The notes under the pieces: generated by a model | Told to the model about the DNA's origin: nothing | What the model saw: the letters and a program-made list of their open reading frames with translations, nothing else | The model's database searches: none | Translations under genes and position numbers: made by a program | Source of the DNA: a bacterium | Lineage (GTDB): Bacteria; Patescibacteriota; Saccharimonadia; Saccharimonadales; AWTP1-31 | DNA length: 52,011 nt | Assembly (NCBI GenBank): GCA_030426125.1 | Contig: JAUHZB010000006.1 | Location: 1 to 52,011, forward strand | Reading direction: 5' to 3' | Shown here: in pieces, positions 5,064-30,067 of the stretch | Layout: each line of letters begins with the position of its first letter | Position numbering within the stretch: the stretch's first letter is position 1

Positions 5064-6884
5064 TTATTCATTACGGATTCGATGAATTCTTTTAATCTTA
5101 TTGGGAGGATCAAATGTATATACAGAAATAGTTGGGATATCTCTCATGTAGTCTGACTTTGAAATAATGTCTTGGAAAGTCCATTTAATGTATAACCACC
5201 TTGATCTGGCTGCTACGGAAAAATACGCTATGTTGCAATGACCTTTTGATATACGCTTATCAAAAGACCATCCGGGTGTAAAGCCATTATTTTCGCCAGC
5301 CCGGAGAAGTTGACATTTCCCAACTCTCACAGTCTTACGTAATTGATCTGACTTTGCCTGTAGTGTAGCATTCGCTAACCATCTCTGTTGTGCTTGTACC
5401 GTGTTATTATGAGCATTCATTTTTTGCTGCAAAGCTTCTAGTAAATCGTTGCCTCTTTGAGCATAGAAAAATGCACAATCTTTCTGTCCATTTGCTACCA
5501 TTTCGCGATCTAATCTTGCTTTATTCTGAACATAGTAAACATCGTTTGCATGGGCAGTTGGCTTCCATACAGGACAACCTTTAATTGATTGCGATGCAAC
5601 ATCTCTAACGTTCCTAAAAGCATTATTTATTCTTTGCTTCGATGAGGCGTATGCTAACCAAAATTTATGACAGTCAGCAGGATACTTTTTTCCTTGATTG
5701 TTTACACCATTCTTGTATTGATTCATTCCGGCGTCACCGGAAGCTGTAGGGCAAGCATCATTACCAATAACACCATCAGATCCTGAAATTGCTACTGCTG
5801 TTTGTATTGGCTTGGAATTTGTACTGGGTTTATTCTTATTCATGGCATAGCCAATCCACTTCTCGTGACAAGATTTTGGATATTTCTTACCTTGGTTATT
5901 TACACCATTCTTGTATTGATTTAAGCCAGCGTCACCGGCAGCTGTTGGACAAGCATCATTACCGATTTTATCATTTGCGCTACTACTAGGTGCAGTCGTT
6001 GTTTGCTTAGCCGCATCCTGGTGTTTCTTTATTTGTTCTTGTTGAGTTTTAGCTGTTTCCTGTTTCTGTTGTTCTGTTTGTTGCTGGTTGATTGTTTTTT
6101 CTAGGTTTTCTCTTTGAATCTTACACCTATCACTAATAAAATTGGCCTCAATTGAACAATCATATGGATTAGGAGTAGTTACTGTTTTATCACCCTCTTT
6201 GTTAACAACTTGGTAATTTGGCTTATAGGCGTAGAAAGCTACGTACGGTGCCAGGTCATCCTTCTTCCAGCCGTTAGCTTTGCCTTTATCTTGGGCTAGT
6301 ACTCTTAATACCCATGCTCCATCGGTCGAGAAAATCGGCTGAGTATGATTTCCAGCCCTGGTCAATCGATAAACTGGCACCGTACCACCCGGCCTGGTGT
6401 CTTTAGTCCAAGCGTAAAATGCTACCCCTCCACTTTTTACCTTGCCTTTGTACTTGGCTTCTTTAGTGCTCTTCTGCTTCGGTGTAACCCAATCGTGATA
6501 GGTAGCTTCGGCGTTATGGACACGAGTTATGGGGACTGCTTTTTTGTAAGCATGCGCTGGTGCTCTAAATACTGTTCCATAATATACCCCCCACCCTCTA
6601 GAGCCTAAGTCCTTAGGTTCTGAGCCACGCGAGAGAATAGTGTCAGTACTACTTGCAACCTGATCTACATCACATATAGGAACGCCATCTTGTTTTTGAC
6701 AGTTATTAGGTGCTGCCTGACTGAAAACTAGAACACTAGCGCCAACTACGGATATAGCTAGTATTACTAATAAGCTTAGTAAAGGTTTCCTTTTGCTAAC
6801 CAGCAAGAAACTGAGTTTTTTGTTTTTTGCTTGGTTTACCCCACTTCGGGAACCTTGTTTGTTGTTTTGTTTTGTTTTTGGCAT
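5064..6884 (-). CDS. secreted/anchored surface protein with DUF5648-like region and two Cys-containing repeats
   Basis: Basic N-terminus + TM; VPVYRLTRAGNHTQPIFST..GW..VAFYAYKP resembles DUF5648 repeats (from memory); two copies of NDACPTAxGDAGxNQYKNGVNNQGKKYPxxCHxxWxxYA. Confidence 0.65.
   Translation of the reverse strand: MPKTKQNNKQGSRSGVNQAKNKKLSFLLVSKRKPLLSLLVILAISVVGASVLVFSQAAPNNCQKQDGVPICDVDQVASSTDTILSRGSEPKDLGSRGWGVYYGTVFRAPAHAYKKAVPITRVHNAEATYHDWVTPKQKSTKEAKYKGKVKSGGVAFYAWTKDTRPGGTVPVYRLTRAGNHTQPIFSTDGAWVLRVLAQDKGKANGWKKDDLAPYVAFYAYKPNYQVVNKEGDKTVTTPNPYDCSIEANFISDRCKIQRENLEKTINQQQTEQQKQETAKTQQEQIKKHQDAAKQTTTAPSSSANDKIGNDACPTAAGDAGLNQYKNGVNNQGKKYPKSCHEKWIGYAMNKNKPSTNSKPIQTAVAISGSDGVIGNDACPTASGDAGMNQYKNGVNNQGKKYPADCHKFWLAYASSKQRINNAFRNVRDVASQSIKGCPVWKPTAHANDVYYVQNKARLDREMVANGQKDCAFFYAQRGNDLLEALQQKMNAHNNTVQAQQRWLANATLQAKSDQLRKTVRVGKCQLLRAGENNGFTPGWSFDKRISKGHCNIAYFSVAARSRWLYIKWTFQDIISKSDYMRDIPTISVYTFDPPNKIKRIHRIRNE
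5665..5968 (-). repeat. Duplicated ~107 bp segment inside the 5064..6884 CDS (copies ~5665-5771 and ~5862-5968)
   Basis: Near-identical DNA, e.g. caccattcttgtattgatt...gcgtcaccgg.agctgt.gg.caagcatcattacc in both. Confidence 0.85.
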
Positions 6885-6921
6885 TATTTATTTTGCCTTT
6901 GTTTAATTGATTATGCTTAGG

Positions 6922-6950
6922 ATTGTATTAGCATGTAATGCTAATGTCAA
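6922..6950 (-). promoter_or_regulatory. Sigma70-type promoter whose 17-bp spacer is a palindrome
   Basis: Minus strand TTGACA-TTAGCATTACATGCTAA-TACAAT; spacer is TTAGCAT/ATGCTAA arms around TAC. Confidence 0.75.
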
Positions 6951-6980
6951 ATAACACAACAATTTAATTTATTATCATCT

Positions 6981-8471
6981 TTATAGTGCAAGACTAAATT
7001 CAAGTACTTGAGTGTCTTGTCCTTGACTAGCCGACAGAGTATATCCCTTAGAATTAATTACGTAGCTCTGCCCGCTCCTACTAGCTTGGATAAACGGCCT
7101 AGCGTTTCTAACCGCTTGAAATACTGCCATTCTTTTGGCTAGTAAATGGTAATTACTTTCAGATTTAAGCAAGGATAATGACGCTGGGTTTAATAATATA
7201 TCTGCACCATTATCTACAAGCTGTTTGTAGCTAGCGGTAGTAATAACCCCACTGCATGGCAGTGCACCATAACTGATACTTTTATCCTCAAAATTTCTTA
7301 TTGGTGTATTGCCTGGTTCTAGCTTGTATGAATATTTATAGAGATCATTGTATTCTTGCTTTCCGATCAAGCTAAACAAACTTGAAGTTACATAAGGCAA
7401 ATATTCGCCACCTGGTACCAATCTGCGCTTGGCTACTGAATATACCTCCGTTCCGGTTTTGTCGATAAATACTAAAATATTTTGTGCATCGGGGGATTTA
7501 CCTTCTAGTTTGGTAGTCACTATTAGACCCCTATCACTTAATTTGCCTAGCACCTGCTGGTATCTATTGTTCTGTTGAAGCTCGGAATACTCAGGCAGGA
7601 CTAATAAATCTATGTCCTTAGGCAATGAATCAACATTGGCTGGATTAGCCATAGTATCCTGTTCATTTAAATGGATGGCTGCCATATTAATCTTGCTTAA
7701 TCCGGAGGTTTGCTTGTTTAGATCAATACCATAACCTAGCCCAACAACCAACAAGAATATGGCAAATAATGTGCCGGCGAATATATACTGCTTTCTTATA
7801 GCAACTAAATATACTGCTAAGGCGCCGAAACAGACAATCAGACTTAGCCCGTAAAAGCCGAGTAGGCGTGAAGAAAATACCATCGACGTACTACTAGCAA
7901 TACTGCAGATCCCAGCAAAATTGTTCTGGTACCCAATACTACCACCTGGACCATAGCTAATTACCGAAAAGAACCAACCATTGACTATCTCGCAGGCGAC
8001 CCATAAAAAAGGAAAAGCCAGCAACCTGTAGTCTGGCTTCTTTATCCAAAAACCCATAAGTGGCAACAACATAAACCCGAGTGATGTAAACATACTGGTT
8101 ATCATCCAAGCACTTACTACTGCATATGAAGAAAACCAACCTGATACTAGGAACTGCCAGTTAGCAGGCTCAATACTTAAGAAAAATGAGTAAGCGAACA
8201 AGCTAATAACCAGTCCGCTTAGATAGAAATCAAGAAGTGCCCTCTTTTTATTTACCTTATATATATTGTGAAGATAGTAAATAAAAGGAAGTAGTCCGAC
8301 CAGTATCGACCATTCCAGCCCTGGAACTATAAAATTCAACCCAATGACTAAACTCCCCCCATATAACAGATAGCTTTGAAGGTGAGTGCAACCAACAAAC
8401 ATCTTCAATCCAATTTGGAGCCTAGAACCTATTGTATTTAGTCTATCCATATTGTCGGTATTGTATATCAC
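6981..8471 (-). CDS. apolipoprotein N-acyltransferase-like membrane protein (CN-hydrolase domain)
   Basis: Multi-TM N-terminus; nitrilase triad candidates LLVLPEYSE / AKRRLVPGGEYLPY / GALPCSGVI. Alternative start at internal Met8 (8450). Confidence 0.8.
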   Translation of the reverse strand: MIYNTDNMDRLNTIGSRLQIGLKMFVGCTHLQSYLLYGGSLVIGLNFIVPGLEWSILVGLLPFIYYLHNIYKVNKKRALLDFYLSGLVISLFAYSFFLSIEPANWQFLVSGWFSSYAVVSAWMITSMFTSLGFMLLPLMGFWIKKPDYRLLAFPFLWVACEIVNGWFFSVISYGPGGSIGYQNNFAGICSIASSTSMVFSSRLLGFYGLSLIVCFGALAVYLVAIRKQYIFAGTLFAIFLLVVGLGYGIDLNKQTSGLSKINMAAIHLNEQDTMANPANVDSLPKDIDLLVLPEYSELQQNNRYQQVLGKLSDRGLIVTTKLEGKSPDAQNILVFIDKTGTEVYSVAKRRLVPGGEYLPYVTSSLFSLIGKQEYNDLYKYSYKLEPGNTPIRNFEDKSISYGALPCSGVITTASYKQLVDNGADILLNPASLSLLKSESNYHLLAKRMAVFQAVRNARPFIQASRSGQSYVINSKGYTLSASQGQDTQVLEFSLAL

Positions 8472-8559
8472 CCATTGAAAGTACTACAAATAGCTAATGT
8501 TTCATTAATGTGGTACAATAGTTGCAATAATTCGTATTAAATAGTATAATATAGTTATT

Positions 8560-8868
8560 ATGTCAATCTACACAATGTCGTGCGAACAGCATACTGAACA
8601 TCGCATCCATAGCGATGATACTACTCTAGTTGTCGTTCAACCCCCTATCGATCCTGAAAATGTCGTCACGCACCCAGAATATGGCGAAGGCACAGCTTAC
8701 ATAACTGCGAAATGCCCGGGATCAAATGATGAGATATTGCAAAGAATCGTAGAATCACAAGTTATGTTTGAAGTACTAAAAGTTACTGAAGTAGACATTC
8801 AATTCATCCATCTTGATAAAATCATTGACTTCCCAAAGATAGAAGTTGGGCAGCACCAAGTAAATTAA
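8560..8868 (+). CDS. hypothetical protein
   Basis: 102-aa ORF with strong promoter TTGCAA(8522)-N17-TATAAT(8545) directly upstream. Confidence 0.65.
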   Translation: MSIYTMSCEQHTEHRIHSDDTTLVVVQPPIDPENVVTHPEYGEGTAYITAKCPGSNDEILQRIVESQVMFEVLKVTEVDIQFIHLDKIIDFPKIEVGQHQVN

Positions 8869-8934
8869 TCTAGATTGATTTCTGTGAAGAATATAATAGG
8901 TGAAGCTCACTTGCCTTCGAATAAAATTAGCAGA

Positions 8935-9753
8935 TCAGTAATTTAACGTATAGTCAACGACTTCCCAGGAATTGTTTTGCTTATTGAAATAAAGCAAACC
9001 ATAGAAATCTTGATCTGAATAGTTGGCTGTGTAGCTAATGGTTCCTTGATCTGGGTTGCTCGACTTCCATGTATCTCTTTTGATATTTATCGTGGCTTCA
9101 GGGGGCACAACACTAGTATCAGTCGCAATGTACTGATTATTATAAATACCTTCACTTTCGATCGATTTTATAGCCGTACAAACGCCTTGAGGCATATTCT
9201 CAACCCCACAATGTTTTGACTTGGTGGCCGACGGGGAACTTGAGTTGTTATTATTCTTTGGCCCATCCGATGACTTATTCTGAGTCTGAGAAAGTCCACT
9301 ATTGTCATTATTATTTGCCTCTTCGGACAATGGCGCCTTATTCGAGTCAACTTTTTCAGTTAACTCATTTGTTTCGGACGAAACTGAGCCGGAATCTTCC
9401 GAGTTACGATCTTTTAAAGCCATCCCTGCAACAATTAAGACTACAGCTAGCAATATAGCAACGAAAATAATAAGCATGCGTTTGCGTAATTTTTGACGCT
9501 TTTGATTTTTTTCAACGCTTGTTGCGGATATTATCGGTTGCTGAGATACATCAACAGATGGTTGATTATTCTTTGAGTCAACTAGATGACTATTATTAAT
9601 ATTATCTGGAGGTTGTTCAGGATTATTAGGCATGGGACTATTTGCTGTAGGTGCGCTCTGATTATTCGCTAAATTTTGCCCCAAGCTTGATTCAACACCC
9701 GGAGATATCGTATGATCAGTGTCTTTTGGACTAAAGTTTTCAGAATTACTCAT
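8935..9753 (-). CDS. hypothetical membrane-anchored protein with Asn/Ser-rich regions
   Basis: Cytosolic N-terminus, TM (MLIIFVAILLAVVLIVAGMAL), low-complexity linker, folded C-terminus. Confidence 0.7.
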   Translation of the reverse strand: MSNSENFSPKDTDHTISPGVESSLGQNLANNQSAPTANSPMPNNPEQPPDNINNSHLVDSKNNQPSVDVSQQPIISATSVEKNQKRQKLRKRMLIIFVAILLAVVLIVAGMALKDRNSEDSGSVSSETNELTEKVDSNKAPLSEEANNNDNSGLSQTQNKSSDGPKNNNNSSSPSATKSKHCGVENMPQGVCTAIKSIESEGIYNNQYIATDTSVVPPEATINIKRDTWKSSNPDQGTISYTANYSDQDFYGLLYFNKQNNSWEVVDYTLNY

Positions 9754-10521: not shown

Positions 10522-11919
10522 TCATCTGCGGAGGATTAACTTTTTTAGTTTTGTTCGAAAAATTAATGCCAACAGTAATAATATGATTACGCCCAAGCTT
10601 ACTAACCATTCTCCGACAAGCGTATATACCGTCTTATCTGAGTTTGTTTTTATATTAGTATCAACTGCTCCTAATTCATTTATCTCAACTAACGTATTAC
10701 CATTATTATCTAGAGCATATGCTCGAGCAGAATTAGCCGATTGCAAAAAATAACGACTGTTTGCAACAGCCATAAATTTCGCCAAAGATTTTTGTTGCCA
10801 AGCAAATAGCACAGAGCCCTTAAAAATAGTCAAAGACGCGGAGTTACTCAGAACAGTTGCGTTGTTGTTACTAAATTCACGATAATCTTGAGGCGATATA
10901 ATACTGGAGCAAACTGCTGCCCCGATAATAACATCTTCCTTTACCTCAAATGGTTGCAGTTGTTCACTACTTCTTATAACGCTTTTAACGTTACTAAAAT
11001 AATCCAACGTACCCTTCTGGTTAGACGCCCGGAGCGCTGTTCTCAATATATAAGGCAGATCTTCACCCCCTGGAATCAGACGAAACTTATCCTGGTACCA
11101 CGTAATGCCGTCTTGACTATTACCATATACCATTCTATTCAAGTGGCCTGTTTCTCCCTCAGGATTAACTTCGAGCGAGCCTAAGAAATATGTAGTAGCT
11201 TGATCACTTTCAGTTCTTTCCAGCCGTTTATGTAGATTCCTACTATTAATTTCATCTAACCCGTATTCAGGATAAACAACCAAATCGCTATTTTCTTTGT
11301 TAACAGGTGGGACTTTGTGGTTTATAGTTTCACTTATTATGGTTGCTTTAAACTCTACTCCATTTACTTTTTTATAAAAATGCCACCCCCATAAAGACAG
11401 CAGCGTCAAAAAAAGGAACGGGAAAACAGCTAAACGCCTCCTATCTTTATCTACTAAGAGTATTAAGAAAAGCCATAAAAAACCCGCAAAACCAAAAAAC
11501 CCGATTATTCTAGTAGCGTAAATAAATGGTGTCTGAATAAACAATAGAGTCGCTGAACCAAGCGGTAATAGGCTATCCAATCTACCCTGTGGCCCTATCC
11601 AAAATACAGAAGGAATCCAAGCCACCAGGTAATCAAAGAGGGCCAGCAGTGGAATAAGGGCTATCATAATCCAATTTGGATAAATACTTAATAACCATCT
11701 GCACAGACGAATAGCCTGCCACATTATTAATGAGCTAATAGCCACATTGATAGTCAAAACAAAAGAAGCAATAATAAAGCCTTGGATCGAATTACCAGCT
11801 AAGTCAAGCGTGTCTGTAAATAATACCCAAGACCAGGCTATAGTGTACCAGCAGACCAACAGCAATAATAGAGGGCTAGCAGTTAATTTACGGTAGAAAC
11901 GAACCACATACTTACGCAT
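10522..11919 (-). CDS. second apolipoprotein N-acyltransferase-like protein
   Basis: Multi-TM plus nitrilase motifs VVYPEYGLDE / DKFRLIPGGEDLPY / GAAVCSSII. The ORF track start (12006) lies inside tRNA-Glu; internal Met30 (11919) is more plausible. Confidence 0.75.
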   Translation of the reverse strand: MRKYVVRFYRKLTASPLLLLLVCWYTIAWSWVLFTDTLDLAGNSIQGFIIASFVLTINVAISSLIMWQAIRLCRWLLSIYPNWIMIALIPLLALFDYLVAWIPSVFWIGPQGRLDSLLPLGSATLLFIQTPFIYATRIIGFFGFAGFLWLFLILLVDKDRRRLAVFPFLFLTLLSLWGWHFYKKVNGVEFKATIISETINHKVPPVNKENSDLVVYPEYGLDEINSRNLHKRLERTESDQATTYFLGSLEVNPEGETGHLNRMVYGNSQDGITWYQDKFRLIPGGEDLPYILRTALRASNQKGTLDYFSNVKSVIRSSEQLQPFEVKEDVIIGAAVCSSIISPQDYREFSNNNATVLSNSASLTIFKGSVLFAWQQKSLAKFMAVANSRYFLQSANSARAYALDNNGNTLVEINELGAVDTNIKTNSDKTVYTLVGEWLVSLGVIILLLLALIFRTKLKKLILRR

Positions 11920-11994
11920 ATTATCAAGCAAAACGTATATTTGTTTTCGATTTTTGGCACTCACTTTATCAAGTATAACAAACGGAAGTTGGGA

Positions 11995-12069
11995 TGGTGA
12001 CCTCAAGGGGAATCGAACCCCTATTGCCAGGATGAAAACCTGGTGTCCTAGCCGTTAGACGATGAGGCC
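11995..12069 (-). tRNA. tRNA-Glu(TTC), CCA encoded
   Basis: Cloverleaf ggcctca...ccagg TTTTCAT cctgg...ggttcgattcc...tgaggtcacca. Confidence 0.95.
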
Positions 12070-13403: not shown

Positions 13404-14726
13404 TTAGTTTGGTGCACCTGGAATAGTTACTTCAGGACCTTTTTCGGTAGTTGTTGTAGTAGGCCGTTGGGTAGTTGTTGTAGTAGGCCGTTGGGTAGTT
13501 GTTGGGGTTGGGGGTTGAGTCGGAGTTGGAGTTGGGGGTTGAGTCGGAGTTGGAGTTGGGGGTTGAGTCGGAGTTGGAGTTGGGGTTGTTCCAGTGCCTG
13601 TTGGGGTTGTTCCAGTGGTGCCTGTTGGGGTTGTTCCAGTGGTGCCTGTTGGGGTTGTTCCAGTGCCTGCTGGGGTTTCACCAGTAGTTACTATTGAGGT
13701 TCCACCATTTGCAGGAGTTGTAGTTATTGTAGTTTCACCACTTGGAGTACGTACTTCAACAACTAAATCACCGTTGGCGTTTGTTCCAGTTGTAGTAACA
13801 TTTCCAGTTTCTTGATCAACAGTTGTATCTAATATTTCACCGCCTGCAAAAGGAGTGTCACCTTGTGGTACAGGACTATTAGTTGGATCAGTCTCTTCTG
13901 GCTCAAGATCACTTAGATCAAGACTTCCACCTTCACCTTCAGTTAGTCCAGTAAAGTAAATTTGACCTTCCTTACTAATTAATACTTCGTTATATCCAGT
14001 TTCACCTTCTCCACCATATTTAGATGTTTCGCGTCGTTTTAGTTCTAGCCCACCTAGATCGTTAGGAAGCACTACTCGCTCAAGTGATACGCCTGTAATA
14101 TTGAAGTCTTCATCCCTTTCAGCAACTAGTTGAGTAACTATAGCACCTTTAGCATTCCATAAATCAGTGTATTCAGCATCCTGGTTTAAAGTTTCAAGAA
14201 CTTTCTGACAGTCTTCAGCAGCAGCTTTATCGCCACCTTCAGCTGAATAGGCTGCGTATCGATCTGCGTATGTATTAAGGACTGAGTAGTTTGGGTTTAC
14301 AGCTTCACCATCATGAGAAGGAGCTCCAAAAGCAGCCATAGCTGCAGCCATTGAGGCTCGATCACCTTCATTTGCTAATGGACCATTTTCATTGAATAGG
14401 TTAGAAACATATTCTTTAACATCATCGCCATTACTTAGCTTTTCAGTAAACGGAAGGAAAGCAAAATCGTTATATTTTCCAGAGTTAGAAGCAGCATCTG
14501 CTTCTGTGAAATCTTCACAAGTTAATTCAGCAGGTGTTTTATCGTCAGCTGGTCCATCTCCACCGTCTCTATCAATGCAAGATACTACACCGAAACCAGC
14601 TCCAGCTACTAAAGCTACACCAGCTACACCAGCTACTATTTTGCTACGCAATGATAAAGAATTTCTTTCGTTCTGATCAGCCTCTTGATTAGCTGGCACT
14701 GCTCCTACGGGTTGTTGTTCACTCAT
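13404..14726 (-). CDS. hypothetical membrane protein with long Thr/Pro-rich C-terminal tail
   Basis: TM (IVAGVAGVALVAGAGFGVVSC), folded middle, GTTPTGTT/TPTPTQPP tail. Confidence 0.75.
   Translation of the reverse strand: MSEQQPVGAVPANQEADQNERNSLSLRSKIVAGVAGVALVAGAGFGVVSCIDRDGGDGPADDKTPAELTCEDFTEADAASNSGKYNDFAFLPFTEKLSNGDDVKEYVSNLFNENGPLANEGDRASMAAAMAAFGAPSHDGEAVNPNYSVLNTYADRYAAYSAEGGDKAAAEDCQKVLETLNQDAEYTDLWNAKGAIVTQLVAERDEDFNITGVSLERVVLPNDLGGLELKRRETSKYGGEGETGYNEVLISKEGQIYFTGLTEGEGGSLDLSDLEPEETDPTNSPVPQGDTPFAGGEILDTTVDQETGNVTTTGTNANGDLVVEVRTPSGETTITTTPANGGTSIVTTGETPAGTGTTPTGTTGTTPTGTTGTTPTGTGTTPTPTPTQPPTPTPTQPPTPTPTQPPTPTTTQRPTTTTTQRPTTTTTEKGPEVTIPGAPN
13445..13680. repeat. Compound minisatellite (about 24-27 bp units) encoding the Pro/Thr tail
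   Basis: gttgtagtaggccgttgggtagtt x2; ttgggggttgagtcggagttggag x3; gttggggttgttccagtg(gtg)cct x4. Confidence 0.9.
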
Positions 14727-20008: not shown

Positions 20009-21145
20009 TCAGGAATTAATTAACTTTTTAAAAAACTTATCTCTCGCTTCTTGAGTATCACCGTGATTAGGCTGTATATTTAATACTTCGTTGAATTTTA
20101 TATGCTTCCTTAAGCTTGGCATATCTTCAGATAATGCAATTCTTTTTGTTATATATGCAGCCAAACCACAAACGATATTTACTGTGCCGTACAGGTGAGG
20201 TCTTGAAACTAAAGTATTGCCGACTTCTGACAACGATTTAAAATTTCTGAAGGATATATGCTCTGGTCCCACTATTTTCATAGCATACTTGGCTTTATCA
20301 GATTCACTCATCTTTTTATGTAAAAGATCGTCTGTAATATCTCCCAACAAACCATGGAAAATATCAGCTTCTGGATGCAAGTCAAATCTTTCAATATCAA
20401 CTAAAATACTATCTTCCAAGCTAGTTAACATGACTACTGGTATTTTCGCTTTTTTGGCCTCAAGTCGTAATTTCACCTTCATAGAAAAGTCATCTACTAC
20501 ATCAAAAACGATATCAAGTTTGTTCATGCCAAAAATAAAATCGTTCAAATTATCGTCATTTAATCCCTTATCGAAAATTGACACTTCAGCATAGGGGTCT
20601 ATCTCATATATTTCCTGGGCAGTAACAACAGTTTTTTTCAATTCCACACTTGGAAGACCTACTCTTACTCTATTTAAATTGGTGGTTTCAAAAATATCCG
20701 TGTCAGCGACTTTTATGTTGCTTGAAATTCCACTATATATCAACGCTAGCGCTATTCCATTCCCAAATGATAATCCTGCTATTCCGGCATTAAAGTTTTT
20801 TAATATTTCTTTTTCCTTTTCCGTTATTAGGTGACTCGTGCGATTTGTCCTAAGATCGTAATACTCAGCATGAGGAAGCATGTGAAATAGTAAACCACTC
20901 CAAGGAAAATAAACATAATTACCGCACAAACCATCTGGACTTACTCTAGAATTCACAAATTCATCTAGTGCAAGCGGGTATTGTTCACTATTAATTAATC
21001 CGGGATTTTTTATTTCAAATGTTTCTCTAAGCTGAGATTTATAAATATCTCTAAAACCCCATAATTTCATGCTTTTTAATTTATCTAGTTGTTCTAAAGT
21101 GTACTTACCTTCTTCTAATATAAGCGGTTGAACTCTATCCTGCAT
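20009..21145 (-). CDS. ThiF/E1-like adenylyltransferase family protein
   Basis: AGIAGLSFGNGIALALIYSGI...VADTDIFETTNLNRVRVG...KTVVTAQEIYEIDPYAEV...DIVFDVVDDFSMKVKLRLEAKK. Confidence 0.85.
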   Translation of the reverse strand: MQDRVQPLILEEGKYTLEQLDKLKSMKLWGFRDIYKSQLRETFEIKNPGLINSEQYPLALDEFVNSRVSPDGLCGNYVYFPWSGLLFHMLPHAEYYDLRTNRTSHLITEKEKEILKNFNAGIAGLSFGNGIALALIYSGISSNIKVADTDIFETTNLNRVRVGLPSVELKKTVVTAQEIYEIDPYAEVSIFDKGLNDDNLNDFIFGMNKLDIVFDVVDDFSMKVKLRLEAKKAKIPVVMLTSLEDSILVDIERFDLHPEADIFHGLLGDITDDLLHKKMSESDKAKYAMKIVGPEHISFRNFKSLSEVGNTLVSRPHLYGTVNIVCGLAAYITKRIALSEDMPSLRKHIKFNEVLNIQPNHGDTQEARDKFFKKLINS

Positions 21146-21146
21146 C

Positions 21147-22679
21147 CTATTTTTCCTTTCTTACCCATTTCTGTTTAGTCCCCGGCCTAAAATACTCCGG
21201 GCTTTCGTATTCCCACAAAACAACATCTGGCTTTGCCTCATCGCCAATCATACCAAAGGTCTCCCTATATTCTGAACTCTCACTTAATAAAGCTTCGTGT
21301 AAGATTTTTTGTAACTTTTTAGTTAATTCTTCCGTTACTTTTTGGCCATACTTCATCTCTGCATGGATATTTAACTTTTGTCTACCTTTGTCTGTATAGT
21401 CAACATACATAGTGAATTTACCTGTGACAAGTTCCTCCAAATGACCGGCTTGTAACCCGCGTCGGATTGTATCTGGATAGATTAAGAAAGCATAATAGCT
21501 CACACTAAAGTCGTTTCTTTCATATACGTATACATAAGGTAGATTCCAGAGGGTTTCATTGAAGCTATACTTCTTAGACGCTTGATCGATGTCATAACCC
21601 AACTCTTTCATCGTTCTCTTTACCTGACTCCTATCGATGACTCCCCCATAATCTTTAAGATCGTATCTAACTAAAGGGATTCCACTATATGCACTACATA
21701 TCAGATTATCTCCGTCCTGCTCAAAGAAAAACAATTCAGGGTTATATTGAGTTAAAGTCGGCTGTTTAATAGGGTCTGGAAGTAAAGTCTTTAGCTTATT
21801 ATCGGATATTAAGGACCGCCTTACATATATACTCTCAGGGGTCTCATGCGACATAGTCCCTAAATCTACTGTTCCATAGTGATTTAAAGAGCTCTTATAT
21901 GGATCTTTTACGGATGTTTTCTTCAATACATAATCTCTGAAAGTTTCTGTAAATGCTTCCGCAGAATATACAACTCCTAAGTGATAATCTTCCCACTTAA
22001 TACCCTGTCTCTCGCCATCATCCAAAATATCTTTCAAAAACGGAGCATAAGCCCCGATTATCACTTGATCAAAACTACTGCCTAGTTGTTTTACTGCATT
22101 GATGACCTCTTGCTTGTGAATCCCTGGGGTAATCAAACTAAGATCATAGCCCCCATTTTCAGACACTATCTTCAGTGCTTCATATGTAAACAGTCCACCG
22201 ATCCACGCCCCCATCGGAAACGCTACAATGTACAAAGTACTCTTCTTGTTTATCTGAAAATTTGACCTTAAATATAACTCGGCCATCATTGCGTATTGCC
22301 AATCTTGTGATGTCTCCCTAGGAAAATAATATGGCTCACCTGTAGATCCAGACGTAGTGGATATCACCCACTGCCCATGATCAAATTCACCGTTCCAGCA
22401 TAATTCTTCTTTAGGGTACTTTCTTAAATAGTTATTTTTGTCTATTGTAGGTACTTTTTTAAAATCCTTAATACTGCGGATTTCTTGGTGTTTAATATTA
22501 TGATTCTTTAAGAAATCTTTATAAGCTGGGACGTTTTCGGCCATTTCATGAAACAGCTTTAAGGCTCTTCTTTCGCCCCTTTTTTGCCACAACTCTTCGG
22601 ACTCCGTAGCTAATCGATTATGTAATAATTCTGCACTTCTATAACCACGGGGCAAGAGTAATTTCGTCATATAAACCAA
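21147..22679 (-). CDS. PaaK-like adenylate-forming enzyme
   Basis: VISTTSGSTGEPYYFPR (P-loop), HYGTVDLG, SGIPLVRYDLKDYG. Confidence 0.8.
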   Translation of the reverse strand: MVYMTKLLLPRGYRSAELLHNRLATESEELWQKRGERRALKLFHEMAENVPAYKDFLKNHNIKHQEIRSIKDFKKVPTIDKNNYLRKYPKEELCWNGEFDHGQWVISTTSGSTGEPYYFPRETSQDWQYAMMAELYLRSNFQINKKSTLYIVAFPMGAWIGGLFTYEALKIVSENGGYDLSLITPGIHKQEVINAVKQLGSSFDQVIIGAYAPFLKDILDDGERQGIKWEDYHLGVVYSAEAFTETFRDYVLKKTSVKDPYKSSLNHYGTVDLGTMSHETPESIYVRRSLISDNKLKTLLPDPIKQPTLTQYNPELFFFEQDGDNLICSAYSGIPLVRYDLKDYGGVIDRSQVKRTMKELGYDIDQASKKYSFNETLWNLPYVYVYERNDFSVSYYAFLIYPDTIRRGLQAGHLEELVTGKFTMYVDYTDKGRQKLNIHAEMKYGQKVTEELTKKLQKILHEALLSESSEYRETFGMIGDEAKPDVVLWEYESPEYFRPGTKQKWVRKEK

Positions 22680-25748: not shown

Positions 25749-26417
25749 CTAATCTAACCCTGCCATTATCCGTTTAAGTTGCTTAGCAACCGGTAGTACC
25801 GGTTGAAGTACTGTAGCCTTGCCCGCTACAGTTTTCTGTATTTCTTCCTCGATCCAGTGGTAATGGGTACAGCCGAGCACAATAACATCGGCACCCTTTT
25901 GACAGGCATCCTTCATCTGCTTCTTAATAAGCTGATGCTCTACTTGGTTAGCTTCTATCATAGAAGACCATCTACTGCAGTCTGGCTCTAGAATATCTAC
26001 CTTCGATGCAAACTTTTCTTTGAGCCACTTATACCTATCGCTATCTAATGTTGCTGGAGTTGCACAAACCGCTATACAGTTATTCTTAGTTTGCTCAGCA
26101 GCCGTTTTTACCATCGGTTCCATGCCAATTAAGGGCACAGAAATAACCTTCCTTAGATGACTAATAATATTTGTGGTAACTGTATTACAAGCTATAACAA
26201 TAACTTCGCAGCCATCCTCTACCATTCTATGCAGTAATGGGGTTACTAGCTCTATCAACAGGTCTGGAGACTTGTTACCGTAGGGTATATTCTGAGTATC
26301 TTGAACAAGTTGTATTTGTATATTTTCCAAGTGTTCTTCTAAATAATTGGCAACGGATAAACCGCCAACTCCTGAATCAAAAACCCCAACCTGTATATTT
26401 TTCTTTTTAGGCTTCAC
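25749..26417 (-). CDS. murI: glutamate racemase
   Basis: IQVGVFDSGVGGLSV, NIPYG, VIACNTVTT, VLGCTHYHWI. Confidence 0.93.
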   Translation of the reverse strand: MKPKKKNIQVGVFDSGVGGLSVANYLEEHLENIQIQLVQDTQNIPYGNKSPDLLIELVTPLLHRMVEDGCEVIVIACNTVTTNIISHLRKVISVPLIGMEPMVKTAAEQTKNNCIAVCATPATLDSDRYKWLKEKFASKVDILEPDCSRWSSMIEANQVEHQLIKKQMKDACQKGADVIVLGCTHYHWIEEEIQKTVAGKATVLQPVLPVAKQLKRIMAGLD

Positions 26418-26722
26418 TATTGTTTAGTATATTTTAGTTGACGAAAAACAGCCAGTAGCACACCAAGTACCAACCAAAACAAAGCATAATATACCAAGCC
26501 TTGATCAAAATTTAGTCCAGCACTAAACTCCCCATTACCAGCAGGTACTCTGTACATCTCGAATAATCTAAATGGACCAAACCTTGCAGTTTGTATACCT
26601 TGCTCACTAGCCAACCTTGAGGCCAGACCTATGATTAAAGCAGCGAAGGTTAAAGCGCCAATTACAAGCATTGTTAAAATACTGGTAGCAAACCTACTTT
26701 TATTGTTCCTAAGCACCGCCAT
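26417..26722 (-). CDS. small two-TM membrane protein of the peptide/ABC operon
   Basis: Two hydrophobic helices; overlaps both neighbouring ORFs. Confidence 0.65.
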   Translation of the reverse strand: MAVLRNNKSRFATSILTMLVIGALTFAALIIGLASRLASEQGIQTARFGPFRLFEMYRVPAGNGEFSAGLNFDQGLVYYALFWLVLGVLLAVFRQLKYTKQ

Positions 26723-28046
26723 ATTTTCGTCTCCTATTTAACTCAATAATATAAATTAGAACCATAGCCAAAGCTGAAACTACTAACCAATTGATAAGCT
26801 GCTCAACAGCATTCTTGTCGGAGAAGCTAGCAACTCTAGGCAATAAAAAAATACTCGAAATAGCCAGCGCTGCCGACATAAATTGACTAGCCGTATCACT
26901 AACTCTAGGCACCAGTATGGTGCTCATCATGAGGCCAACGACTGAAGCAAATAGTTGAATAGAAAAATACATAACTATAAAAGTTATCGGGCTAACTGCG
27001 TAGCTAATTAAAGCTAGCAGTAAAGGCGCCCCAATAACTAACCCTAGCGTCGTTACGGCTATAAGTTCAGATTTAACTAAACCGCCTACCCCAGATAATT
27101 GAATAATTTCTGGGGGACAATAGCGAGCTATTACCCCACGAACATCGCAGGCGAAAGTCGCTGATAATATTGCAGTAAAAAATAGTAACTGGTAGGGATC
27201 TATGACCGCTTTACCTCGAGCAATAATAACCAGTGCACTAGAAAAACTAAGAGTTAAAGCTATCAGCAGTGATCCTTTAGTCCTCTTGTTACGCCACAAC
27301 TTCACAAGATACCAGCCCCAATATGGTATAACATTAGGAATAACAGATCTCGTTAAATGTCTAGGTGCCGACTCACCAATGCTCAGCCCACGCCTATACA
27401 ACTGCCAATGACCCAGAATTGGAGCTAGCAATATCAGACAGATAACCATAATAGTTCTGTTATTTTGATCAACTGTGGCCTGAAGTAAATTATCAAATAG
27501 CATACCAGTGGAGATAACAATAGAAATAAATAGCATATAACTAACATTCCTTTTCTTAAGCCTAATCAATAGACAGCCATAGCCAGAAAATAAGCCTAGC
27601 AACCAACCGCTTATTGCAATCACATTGGAAGCTAACATTACTGTAGCTGCTGAATTGATCACCAGTGACCCGAATACACCTACAAAGCTCAAGATAATTA
27701 TTATCGGGATCTCCATAGCCATCCAGCGGGAAAATTTTGTTATTCCCAGCATCTTTAGTATCCCACTATAGCCATAAACACTAGACTGATTACCGATAGA
27801 ATTCATGGCCATTACTACGAATCCGCCTATAATAAATCCAATCGCCAAAGACAAGCAAAAAATTACAGTATCAGGAAATCCAAATGGAAGTATTGCTCCT
27901 CTTACGGCTTTAGCTAAAACTGAGCCGAAGAAAATTGCAATAAACCCTCCGACTAGCAACTTCTTAACTACCGAAAACAACGGAGATAAACTTTGAGATG
28001 AAAAATGGACAATTAATACCGTTCTTATTATCGGCCAATTAAGCAT
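26709..28046 (-). CDS. polytopic membrane protein, probable ABC permease
   Basis: Many TM helices, next to and overlapping the ABC ATPase gene. Confidence 0.7.
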   Translation of the reverse strand: MLNWPIIRTVLIVHFSSQSLSPLFSVVKKLLVGGFIAIFFGSVLAKAVRGAILPFGFPDTVIFCLSLAIGFIIGGFVVMAMNSIGNQSSVYGYSGILKMLGITKFSRWMAMEIPIIIILSFVGVFGSLVINSAATVMLASNVIAISGWLLGLFSGYGCLLIRLKKRNVSYMLFISIVISTGMLFDNLLQATVDQNNRTIMVICLILLAPILGHWQLYRRGLSIGESAPRHLTRSVIPNVIPYWGWYLVKLWRNKRTKGSLLIALTLSFSSALVIIARGKAVIDPYQLLFFTAILSATFACDVRGVIARYCPPEIIQLSGVGGLVKSELIAVTTLGLVIGAPLLLALISYAVSPITFIVMYFSIQLFASVVGLMMSTILVPRVSDTASQFMSAALAISSIFLLPRVASFSDKNAVEQLINWLVVSALAMVLIYIIELNRRRKYGGA

Positions 28047-28773
28047 TGTAGACCTCCATAAACCTATTAGATAGGCTACCTGATCGATCTATAATATTCT
28101 CTATATAGTCGTTGAATACAATAGATCCTCTGGCGATCATCACAATCTCTTGTCCTAATCTCTCAGCCCAGTACAAATCATGTGTAGCTGCTATAATGCA
28201 ACTTCCTCCGTACATTTTGCGCCTCAATAACCTCTCGGCTCTATCTATAGCTACCGGATCTAGACCATTTCTAAGCTCATCAACAACTATAAAAAACGGA
28301 TCATGAATCAAGCCAGCAATGATCTGGACTTTCTTTTTATTTCCATGACTTAAGTCACCTAGCTGTTGATTGAAGCTATCAAATAACAAATCCTGTGCTA
28401 ATTCCTCAAGTCGTTTATTTGCGATTTTGGGGTCAATAGTTTTATAAATAGAAATTAATAAGGAGAAATATTCCTTAGCGGTTAGCTCTGGAATTATCCA
28501 ATCTTCATTATCCGGAATGAAACCAACCAATCTCTTAACCTCAACAGACTCTTTACTACTATCATATCCGCAGATATCAACCACTCCACTACTCGGCTTT
28601 ATTAAGCCAACTAAGCTTTCCATAAAAGTGGTCTTTCCGCTACCATTAGCTCCGACGATACAAGTCATACCGCCTGGTAAAAAACGAAGATATGGAATAT
28701 ATAGCTGGAATTTTTGACTACGCCTAACTTTCAGCTCATCAATAGTTAACTTTATTCTACGTCTTCGTCGCAT
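28039..28773 (-). CDS. ABC transporter ATP-binding protein
   Basis: Walker A GANGSGKTT; signature-like LGDLSHGNKKKVQIIAGL; Walker B FIVVDEL; TH switch. Internal start MRRRRRIKL preferred over 28815. Confidence 0.9.
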   Translation of the reverse strand: MRRRRRIKLTIDELKVRRSQKFQLYIPYLRFLPGGMTCIVGANGSGKTTFMESLVGLIKPSSGVVDICGYDSSKESVEVKRLVGFIPDNEDWIIPELTAKEYFSLLISIYKTIDPKIANKRLEELAQDLLFDSFNQQLGDLSHGNKKKVQIIAGLIHDPFFIVVDELRNGLDPVAIDRAERLLRRKMYGGSCIIAATHDLYWAERLGQEIVMIARGSIVFNDYIENIIDRSGSLSNRFMEVYNA

Positions 28774-29617
28774 AACGAGCCTCCTGAATAAACCCCCAAA
28801 TAACACGACCATCACTAAAACCAGGCATCCAGCTACACAGATGAAATATTGCTACACTTATTCCAATAATCCAGCTGAACCACAATGTGGCAAGCAGCGA
28901 TAGTGGCAAAATAAGAATCGAGACTAATGCCCCCGCGACTGGTCCGGACACGGCACTAAGCAGTTCATCCTTATGATCTAACGTTGGATGTAGCACCCCT
29001 ATCCTTGAGCCTCTAATCAGTAAAGCTGGTTTATATAAACAATGCCTTGGCTCTCTGGTCACAAAATAGATGTGCACTAATTCATGAACAACTGTACTGA
29101 TCAGCAGACAACCATAGAACGTGATTGTCACCCAAACTATAGTACTAACAGAGATATTTAGCCCGTAAGCAATGATAGCTGTGAATAGCATCAATATATT
29201 AGTCAACCTCATTGCCCTAATAACTGCCTGTATAGCTCCTGTAATATCTCCTTCGAATCGCTGTGACGGTTTATCTACTTTGACAAAATGAAGCTTCATA
29301 TTTGCCCTATAATACAAGTCATTTAGCGCAGAGCGCCTAGTCCTATCAACCTGCAGACCTCCTATACTATCCAAGAAATTAAATACAGTCTGTATAGTCT
29401 CGGTAGCTAAGTATCTATTTTGAAGCCTCCTACGAAGCTGCCACCAATATATTGGCTCAACTAGACCCTCGATGATATACACAGCAAACCTCGAAAGTTG
29501 ATGGCTAGCTCCATTGGCCCGGTCATAAATGTAACTACCCTTATGGATTAAACCTGACGACAAGCGCAGTTTGTCATCATCAGAAATTAATCCGGCATTA
29601 TAGGCGATAGCACTCAT
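28757..29617 (-). CDS. M50/site-2-protease-like membrane metalloprotease
   Basis: TVVHELVHIYFV (HExxH), SAVSGPVAGALVS, CSWMPGFSDGRVIWG (second metal-ligand DG motif). Confidence 0.75.
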   Translation of the reverse strand: MSAIAYNAGLISDDDKLRLSSGLIHKGSYIYDRANGASHQLSRFAVYIIEGLVEPIYWWQLRRRLQNRYLATETIQTVFNFLDSIGGLQVDRTRRSALNDLYYRANMKLHFVKVDKPSQRFEGDITGAIQAVIRAMRLTNILMLFTAIIAYGLNISVSTIVWVTITFYGCLLISTVVHELVHIYFVTREPRHCLYKPALLIRGSRIGVLHPTLDHKDELLSAVSGPVAGALVSILILPLSLLATLWFSWIIGISVAIFHLCSWMPGFSDGRVIWGFIQEARYATKT

Positions 29618-29814
29618 CACCTACACTTAAATGTTGCCTTGGCATTTTTCCAGTCCAACTCTATGCTTTTGGCACCCCGCCATCCGCAGATAATTATGGC
29701 CGCCAACCCGGTAGACCCGACTATAATCACCCAAGCTAGTGCTGCCACTATAACAGCAGATTCTTTAGTTTCATATCGATGAAATGGATCAGCGATAATT
29801 ATTGAATTATTCAT
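29617..29814 (-). CDS. 65-aa hydrophobic small protein, candidate precursor/substrate peptide
   Basis: SD aagaggg upstream of ATG 29814: MNNSIIIADPFHRYETKESAVIVAALAWVIIVGSTGLAAIIICGWRGAKSIELDWKNAKATFKCR; TGATG stop-start overlap with the protease gene. Confidence 0.65.
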   Translation of the reverse strand: MNNSIIIADPFHRYETKESAVIVAALAWVIIVGSTGLAAIIICGWRGAKSIELDWKNAKATFKCR

Positions 29815-30067
29815 ACACCCTCTTTTCTTTATGTGACTTTGCGGACAGCTGTGCCTGTATCCATTTGTAGTTCTATGGAAATTTATTGTCAATTTATCAA
29901 AATGGTTAATAATAACCATCATAATTTTGAGAAAATGCTATCTATCAAGAAAAATGGTGCAATTATTACACTGAATTTTTTGTAGTAAAAAAATGTTAAT
30001 CAAATGATTTACAGTCAATTAAATGTTACACACACAAAACATTGAGTTATAATATAAAGTATTAAGA

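What the first reader, a model, noticed from the sequence alone, without database searches (positions are those of the whole stretch)
25749..29814. Overlapping operon: hydrophobic peptide + S2P/M50 protease + ABC ATPase + permease + small TM protein + murI, a candidate peptide-export/toxin system
Seen: a 65-aa peptide gene stops in a TGATG overlap with an HExxH...SDG membrane protease. This runs on, always by overlap, into an ABC ATPase, a permease, a ~100-aa membrane protein and murI. Known: M50 protease + ABC ATPase + permease next to a short peptide is the architecture of Bacillus yydFGHIJ, which also has a radical-SAM enzyme, and peptide-export ABC modules often carry a small membrane immunity protein. 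Inference: the 65-aa product is processed by the protease and exported, and may be a bacteriocin or a signal in an epibiont. The last TM protein may confer immunity. Coupling to D-Glu synthesis is odd and may link the system to cell wall stress.
Basis: partly seen in the sequence, partly recalled or inferred. Interest (0 to 1): 0.82.

Follow-up and report, generated by a model that had tools for sequence, protein, structure and literature searches.

The report
Peptide maturation and export operon
A rare but well-conserved five-gene operon in tiny parasitic Saccharibacteria makes a 65-residue peptide, a membrane protease carrying a peptide-grabbing domain, and a transporter, so it very probably releases and secretes a small peptide whose role (toxin or signal) is still unknown.

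Summary
On the minus strand a 65-aa peptide gene, an M50 site-2-type protease, an ABC ATPase, a 12-TM permease, a two-TM protein and murI follow one another by short overlaps. The first five recur in the same order in seven Saccharibacteria loci (window included) of at least three families; an eighth genome keeps only peptide and protease. Among 391 genomes of the order, peptide and protease occur in exactly the same seven. murI does not belong: it is absent from the locus in most relatives. Every peptide has a ribosome-binding site, one TM segment and an invariant C-X20-C-[KR] C-terminus; in the closest pair it is the slowest-evolving gene of the set. New here: the protease's N-terminal ~92 residues fold like a RiPP recognition element (PqqD-like leader-binding domain), missed by Pfam. 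Best reading: a RiPP-like maturation/export module, in which an RRE guides a 65-aa precursor to an intramembrane protease and the ABC transporter exports or defends against the product. It resembles Bacillus yydFGHIJ in layout but is not one: the genome has no radical SAM protein. Toxin versus signal is undecided; the peptide's slow evolution does not suggest a diversifying bacteriocin.

The parts
29617..29814 (-). 65-aa precursor peptide gene: polar acidic leader (res. 1-18), TM segment (about 20-43), basic C-terminal loop closed by C43 and C64 (C-X20-C-R-end)
   Evidence: ORF; homologs and alignment A5; Cys spacing, charge and dN; held-out detection
29818..29824 (-). Shine-Dalgarno-like stretch AAGAGGG before the peptide ATG
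   Evidence: sequence; an equivalent in all 8 loci
29620..29688 (-). C-terminal segment CGWRGAKSIELDWKNAKATFKCR, with the peptide's most constrained features
   Evidence: invariant C43 G44 W45 and C64 in alignment A5; spacing of 20 invariant in 8 of 8
28757..29617 (-). M50 site-2-type protease with N-terminal RRE-like domain (286-287 aa)
   Evidence: invariant HExxH and DG in 8 homologs; profile matches MJ0392 site-2 protease 3b4r, E=2.2e-7; AF2 pLDDT 86; Foldseek
29345..29617 (-). RRE/PqqD-like leader-binding domain, about residues 1-91 of the protease
   Evidence: AF2 strands followed by three helices; 27 of 46 Foldseek PDB hits are RRE-bearing RiPP proteins incl. lasso B1 with leader (TMt 0.62-0.67) and PqqD (0.53)
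29072..29086 (-). HELVH zinc-binding motif (third ligand Asp of SDG at 28811-28813)
   Evidence: sequence; invariant
28039..28773 (-). ABC transporter ATPase (244 aa; family motif DELRNGLDP)
   Evidence: Pfam ABC_tran E=3.7e-17; alignment A3
26709..28046 (-). ABC permease, 445 aa, 12 predicted TM segments
   Evidence: hydropathy; a homolog matches ABC2_membrane_3 E=6e-5; AF2 pLDDT 76; weak Foldseek match to a mycobacterial efflux pump 8k1o/8k1p TMq 0.42-0.45
26417..26722 (-). Two-TM protein, 101 aa, with conserved GPxxLFxxxK-like motif between the TMs; candidate immunity or accessory subunit
   Evidence: conserved at the same place in 7 loci (alignment A7); 2 TMs
25749..26417 (-). murI (glutamate racemase): neighbour, judged not part of the system
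   Evidence: TIGR00067 E=2.9e-46 over cut-off; not beside the operon in G001, G191, G249, L018

Best explanation
A dedicated RiPP-like peptide maturation and export module. The 65-aa precursor's acidic N-terminal leader is held by the RRE domain of the M50 protease, which cuts the precursor at or within its hydrophobic segment. The cationic C-terminal segment, CGW...ATFKCR, probably closed by a C43-C64 disulfide, leaves the cell through the ATPase/12-TM-permease pair, or that pair (like EpeAB) protects the producer. The two-TM protein is an accessory or immunity subunit. The product acts outside the cell as a signal or an antimicrobial. Shown: gene set, order, co-occurrence, catalytic ligands, RRE-like predicted fold, invariant cysteines. 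Inferred: cleavage, export, disulfide, and function of the product.
For: Same five-gene order in 7 loci; peptide and RRE-M50 found in exactly the same 7 of 391 genomes (the two other M50 hits there are CBS-type S2Ps); invariant HExxH...DG and site-2 protease homology E=2e-7; N-terminal RRE-like fold; C-X20-C-[KR] in 8 of 8 and purifying selection; M50 proteases mature epipeptides and pearlins (PMC10885120); M50 Eep and ABC PptAB mature and export short hydrophobic pheromones (PMC5167397).
Against: No experiment. Foldseek E-values for the RRE are individually weak (0.14-10). No modifying enzyme in the operon. One single-contig genome (G151) keeps peptide and protease but has no close copy of the ATPase or permease, so the ABC part is dispensable. 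The charge bias (N-term acidic, C-term basic) would by the positive-inside rule leave the C-terminus inside before processing, so the topology is unresolved.
Confidence: 0.72

Rival explanations
1. The secreted product is specifically a bacteriocin or cannibalism-like toxin, with the ABC pair and/or the two-TM protein as immunity (works like EpeX/EpeAB).
For: Layout of epeXEPAB, where EpeAB is the autoimmunity transporter (PMC12871923); cationic C-terminus with two invariant cysteines.
Against: Within the genus the peptide is the slowest-evolving gene (dN 0.09 vs 0.21-0.48 for the others), and in G151 the putative immunity genes are missing while the peptide persists.
Confidence: 0.35
2. The product is a signalling peptide (pheromone-like) for kin or host, matured as by Eep/PptAB.
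For: M50 plus ABC pairing; strong conservation of the C-terminal segment.
Against: No cognate receptor or regulator is conserved in the operon; Eep and PptAB are general proteins, here the genes are dedicated and linked.
Confidence: 0.3
3. The peptide is a resident single-TM subunit or regulator of the transporter, and the M50 protease controls its level (regulated intramembrane proteolysis); nothing is secreted.
For: Single TM; high conservation; M50 enzymes commonly act in RIP (established knowledge).
Against: G151 keeps peptide and protease without a close copy of the ABC genes; an RRE domain is a precursor-recognition device known from RiPP enzymes.
Confidence: 0.17
4. Pearlin-like: the peptide is a reusable scaffold and M50 releases a modified residue from its C-terminus, as TglG does.
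For: M50 TglG/TmoG cut at the C-terminus of scaffold peptides (PMC10885120); invariant C-[KR] end.
Against: No PEARL/LanB-like gene in the operon; none found genome-wide, though that search lacked a positive control.
Confidence: 0.05

Closest known systems
Bacillus subtilis yydFGHIJ / epeXEPAB (epipeptide EPE)
   Same: Short precursor, membrane M50 protease, two-gene ABC transporter in one operon
   Different: No radical SAM epimerase in operon or genome; protease has an RRE-like domain (not checked for EpeP here); extra two-TM protein; precursor has a TM and C-X20-C end, with no convincing family match
Eep + PptAB/EcsAB pheromone maturation in Firmicutes
   Same: M50 protease plus ABC transporter that mature and export short hydrophobic peptides (PMC5167397)
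   Different: There general proteins for several peptides; here dedicated, linked, and with an RRE-like domain; the permease matches no Pfam EcsB model
RRE-guided leader proteases (lasso peptide B proteins)
   Same: RRE, separate or fused, directs a protease to the precursor leader (PMC10885120)
   Different: The lasso protease is a transglutaminase-like cysteine protease; here an intramembrane metalloprotease and no cyclase
Pearlin M50 proteases TglG/TmoG
   Same: Membrane M50 acting on a ribosomal peptide (PMC10885120)
   Different: No peptide aminoacyl-tRNA ligase found (weak control)

Membership tests
Epipeptide (yyd/epe) systems | Radical SAM epimerase | tested here: not met
   PF04055: 0 in the 98%-complete own genome, positive in all 14 controls
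Epipeptide (yyd/epe) systems | Membrane M50 protease beside the precursor | tested here: met
Epipeptide (yyd/epe) systems | Two-gene ABC transporter in the operon | tested here: met
Epipeptide (yyd/epe) systems | Precursor homologous to EpeX/YydF | tested here: inconclusive
   no NCBIfam or Pfam family matched convincingly; no direct alignment with EpeX made
M50 site-2-type proteases | HExxH plus distal Asp ligand in membrane helices | tested here: met
   invariant in 8 of 8; profile hit 3b4r E=2.2e-7
RiPP systems with RRE | RRE (PqqD-fold) domain | tested here: met
   predicted fold only: AF2 and Foldseek; PF05402 did not match
RiPP systems with RRE | Conserved precursor peptide co-occurring with the RRE protein | tested here: met
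   same 7 of 391 genomes
RiPP systems with RRE | Post-translational modification beyond proteolysis | tested here: inconclusive
   no modifying enzyme in the operon; a disulfide or an unlinked enzyme is not excluded
Bacteriocin | Killing activity with cognate immunity | not testable with these tools
   needs experiment
Pearlin | PEARL (LanB-like) enzyme | tested here: inconclusive
   PF04738: 0 hits in the own genome, but no control genome rang

The most novel reading that the evidence does not exclude
A previously undescribed class of ribosomal peptide system of candidate-phyla epibionts: an RRE-guided intramembrane protease that releases a conserved disulfide-looped peptide without any radical SAM or other modifying enzyme, used towards the host bacterium or kin.
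Probability: 0.33. Interest if true: 0.8.

Novelty: new variant of a known kind. Interest (0 to 1): 0.56.

Why it matters
Saccharibacteria live on other bacteria, and few secreted small molecules are known for them. This module names a concrete candidate peptide, its likely maturase and transporter, and a testable biochemical rule (RRE plus M50 in one protein). If right, it adds a fusion of a RiPP recognition element with a site-2-type protease to RiPP biology, and gives a handle on epibiont-host communication or conflict.

Tried and rejected
murI as part of the system: rejected, not conserved at the locus. yyd/epipeptide membership: rejected, no radical SAM in the genome. Firmicutes and other loci L020-L064 found with the ATPase motif: they contain neither the peptide nor the RRE-M50 at profile level, so they are ordinary ABC paralogs. 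Extra M50 hits G184/G111: CBS-domain site-2 proteases unrelated to the system. Extra weak peptide hits G061/G250/G261 (E about 1e-3): partial, and those genomes have no matching protease. Plasmid search for the peptide: none. Phylum-wide sample: only the own genome. Promoter scan: no more than shuffles. Permease fold search: unspecific beyond a weak match to an efflux pump. Weak NCBIfam match of three peptides to TIGR04061 (E=0.017): not pursued, too weak. Resemblance of CGWxGAKSI to the SkfA core: recalled from memory, not tested, treated as coincidence.

Full report
What is there. The window is a contig of a Saccharibacteria-like genome (G000, 0.9 Mb, 98% complete; relatives found by DNA scan are titled Candidatus Saccharibacteria).

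Is the peptide real? Yes. In the first three relatives with the protease, the ORF just upstream of it is the same peptide, and so in the more distant ones. A profile of seven peptides found the eighth, in a locus not used to build it, with E=1e-28 (L018). All eight share M1, E18, A27, G33, A39, C43-G44-W45 and C64, an exactly constant spacing of 20 residues between the two cysteines, and a single K or R after the last one. All have a Shine-Dalgarno-like sequence before the ATG. Against the same-genus genome, dN is 0.09 for the peptide, 0.21 for the ATPase, 0.32 for murI, 0.38 for the small membrane protein, 0.46 for the protease and 0.48 for the permease, with synonymous sites near saturation. 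The precursor is thus the most constrained product of the locus in that one comparison.

What belongs together. The order peptide > protease > ATPase > permease > small membrane protein is kept in the window, G005, G001, G006, G191, G249 and L018. G151, a one-contig genome, keeps the peptide and protease only; its best ATPase match is an ordinary paralog (3e-31, against 3e-107 in its sister genome G249) and it has no permease match. The peptide and the protease are found in exactly the same seven of 391 genomes of the order (peptide, ignoring three partial hits at E about 1e-3; protease, where two further hits are CBS-domain site-2 proteases). A random coincidence of two independent sets of seven would have probability about 4e-15; shared ancestry makes the true figure larger, but the carriers span families f1, f31 and f35. 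In a phylum-wide sample of 381 genomes only the own genome has the peptide. The system is therefore rare and patchy. In family f1 the carriers have it in the murD neighbourhood, while a non-carrier of the same family (G004) has other genes between folD and murD, so it behaves as a discrete unit. murI abuts it only in the same-genus pair, and lies about 0.9 kb away in G006; it is not at the locus elsewhere. I therefore exclude murI.

The protease. The metal ligands are invariant in eight sequences and a profile matches the solved site-2 protease MJ0392 (3b4r) with E=2.2e-7 over the catalytic half. AlphaFold2, from six sequences, gives mean pLDDT 86. The N-terminal ~92 residues form strands followed by three helices. 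Of 46 Foldseek hits in the PDB, 27 are (by my count and knowledge of these proteins) proteins of ribosomal-peptide biosynthesis that carry a RiPP recognition element: MibB, MadB, TigE, NisB, TbtB, McbBCD, lasso B1 proteins with bound leader (TM-score over the target 0.62-0.67), PqqD itself (0.53), TruD, SuiB, MccB and others. Each E-value alone is weak (0.14 to 10); it is the consistency that persuades. Pfam's PqqD model does not detect it, which fits the statement that PF05402 retrieves RREs of other classes incompletely (PMC7470986). An RRE binds the leader of a precursor peptide; its presence on the protease, beside a gene for a small peptide that always co-occurs with it, is the main argument that the peptide is its substrate.

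The transporter. The ATPase is a clear ABC protein with a family motif DELRNGLDP. The permease has 12 hydrophobic segments; one homolog matches ABC2_membrane_3; its model (pLDDT 76) gives only weak fold matches, the most sensible being a mycobacterial efflux pump. The last protein has two TM segments around a conserved GPxxLFxxxK-like motif and matches no family convincingly.

How it probably works. Leader bound by RRE, cleavage at or in the membrane segment by the M50 domain, release of a cationic C-terminal segment with two cysteines, export or self-protection by the ABC pair, accessory or immunity role of the two-TM protein. Cleavage, disulfide and export are inference. A topology problem remains: the leader is acidic and the C-terminus basic, so the C-terminus may sit inside before processing; that would make an exporter necessary, but G151 lacks the dedicated one.

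Comparison with the known. The layout is that of yydFGHIJ/epeXEPAB, in which EpeP is the M50 protease and EpeAB an autoimmunity transporter (PMC7026026, PMC12871923). But the defining radical SAM enzyme is absent from the operon and from the whole genome, although the search finds the family in all 14 control genomes. Eep with PptAB is a functional parallel for pheromones (PMC5167397). M50 proteases also act in pearlin pathways (PMC10885120), but no PEARL was found (weak control). I did not find a description of an RRE fused to an M50 protease, nor of this system in Saccharibacteria, in the searched library; that library lacks most subscription papers, and I read titles and abstracts rather than every paper.

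Verdict. Whether the product is a toxin or a signal is open. Limits: eight loci, mostly metagenome-assembled genomes; models from six sequences; sampled, not exhaustive, genome searches.

Noticed in passing
window 20009-22679 (-): Two-gene pair: a ThiF-family (E1-like) protein (PF00899 E=1e-14) and a PaaK-like adenylate-forming ligase (NF041878 E=8e-11, far below its cut-off), next to a histidine kinase-like gene; looks like a small adenylation pathway of unknown product.
   Followed up: partly
window 6981-8471 and 10522-12006 (-): Two diverged apolipoprotein N-acyltransferase-like/CN-hydrolase membrane proteins 2 kb apart, both below Pfam cut-offs.
   Followed up: partly
window 13404-14726 (-): 440-aa membrane-anchored protein with a long Thr/Pro-rich C-terminal repeat (GTTPTGTT, PTPTQPP, TTTTTQRP).
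   Followed up: no
L013 (G151) 8070-8264 and 7306-8142 (-): Peptide and RRE-M50 persist without a close copy of the dedicated ABC genes; a 243-aa protein of unknown kind follows instead.
   Followed up: partly
L079 (G004) 6185-8967: In a same-family genome without the operon, the folD-murD interval holds an L,D-transpeptidase-like protein (by sequence look only) and a 422-aa protein.
   Followed up: partly
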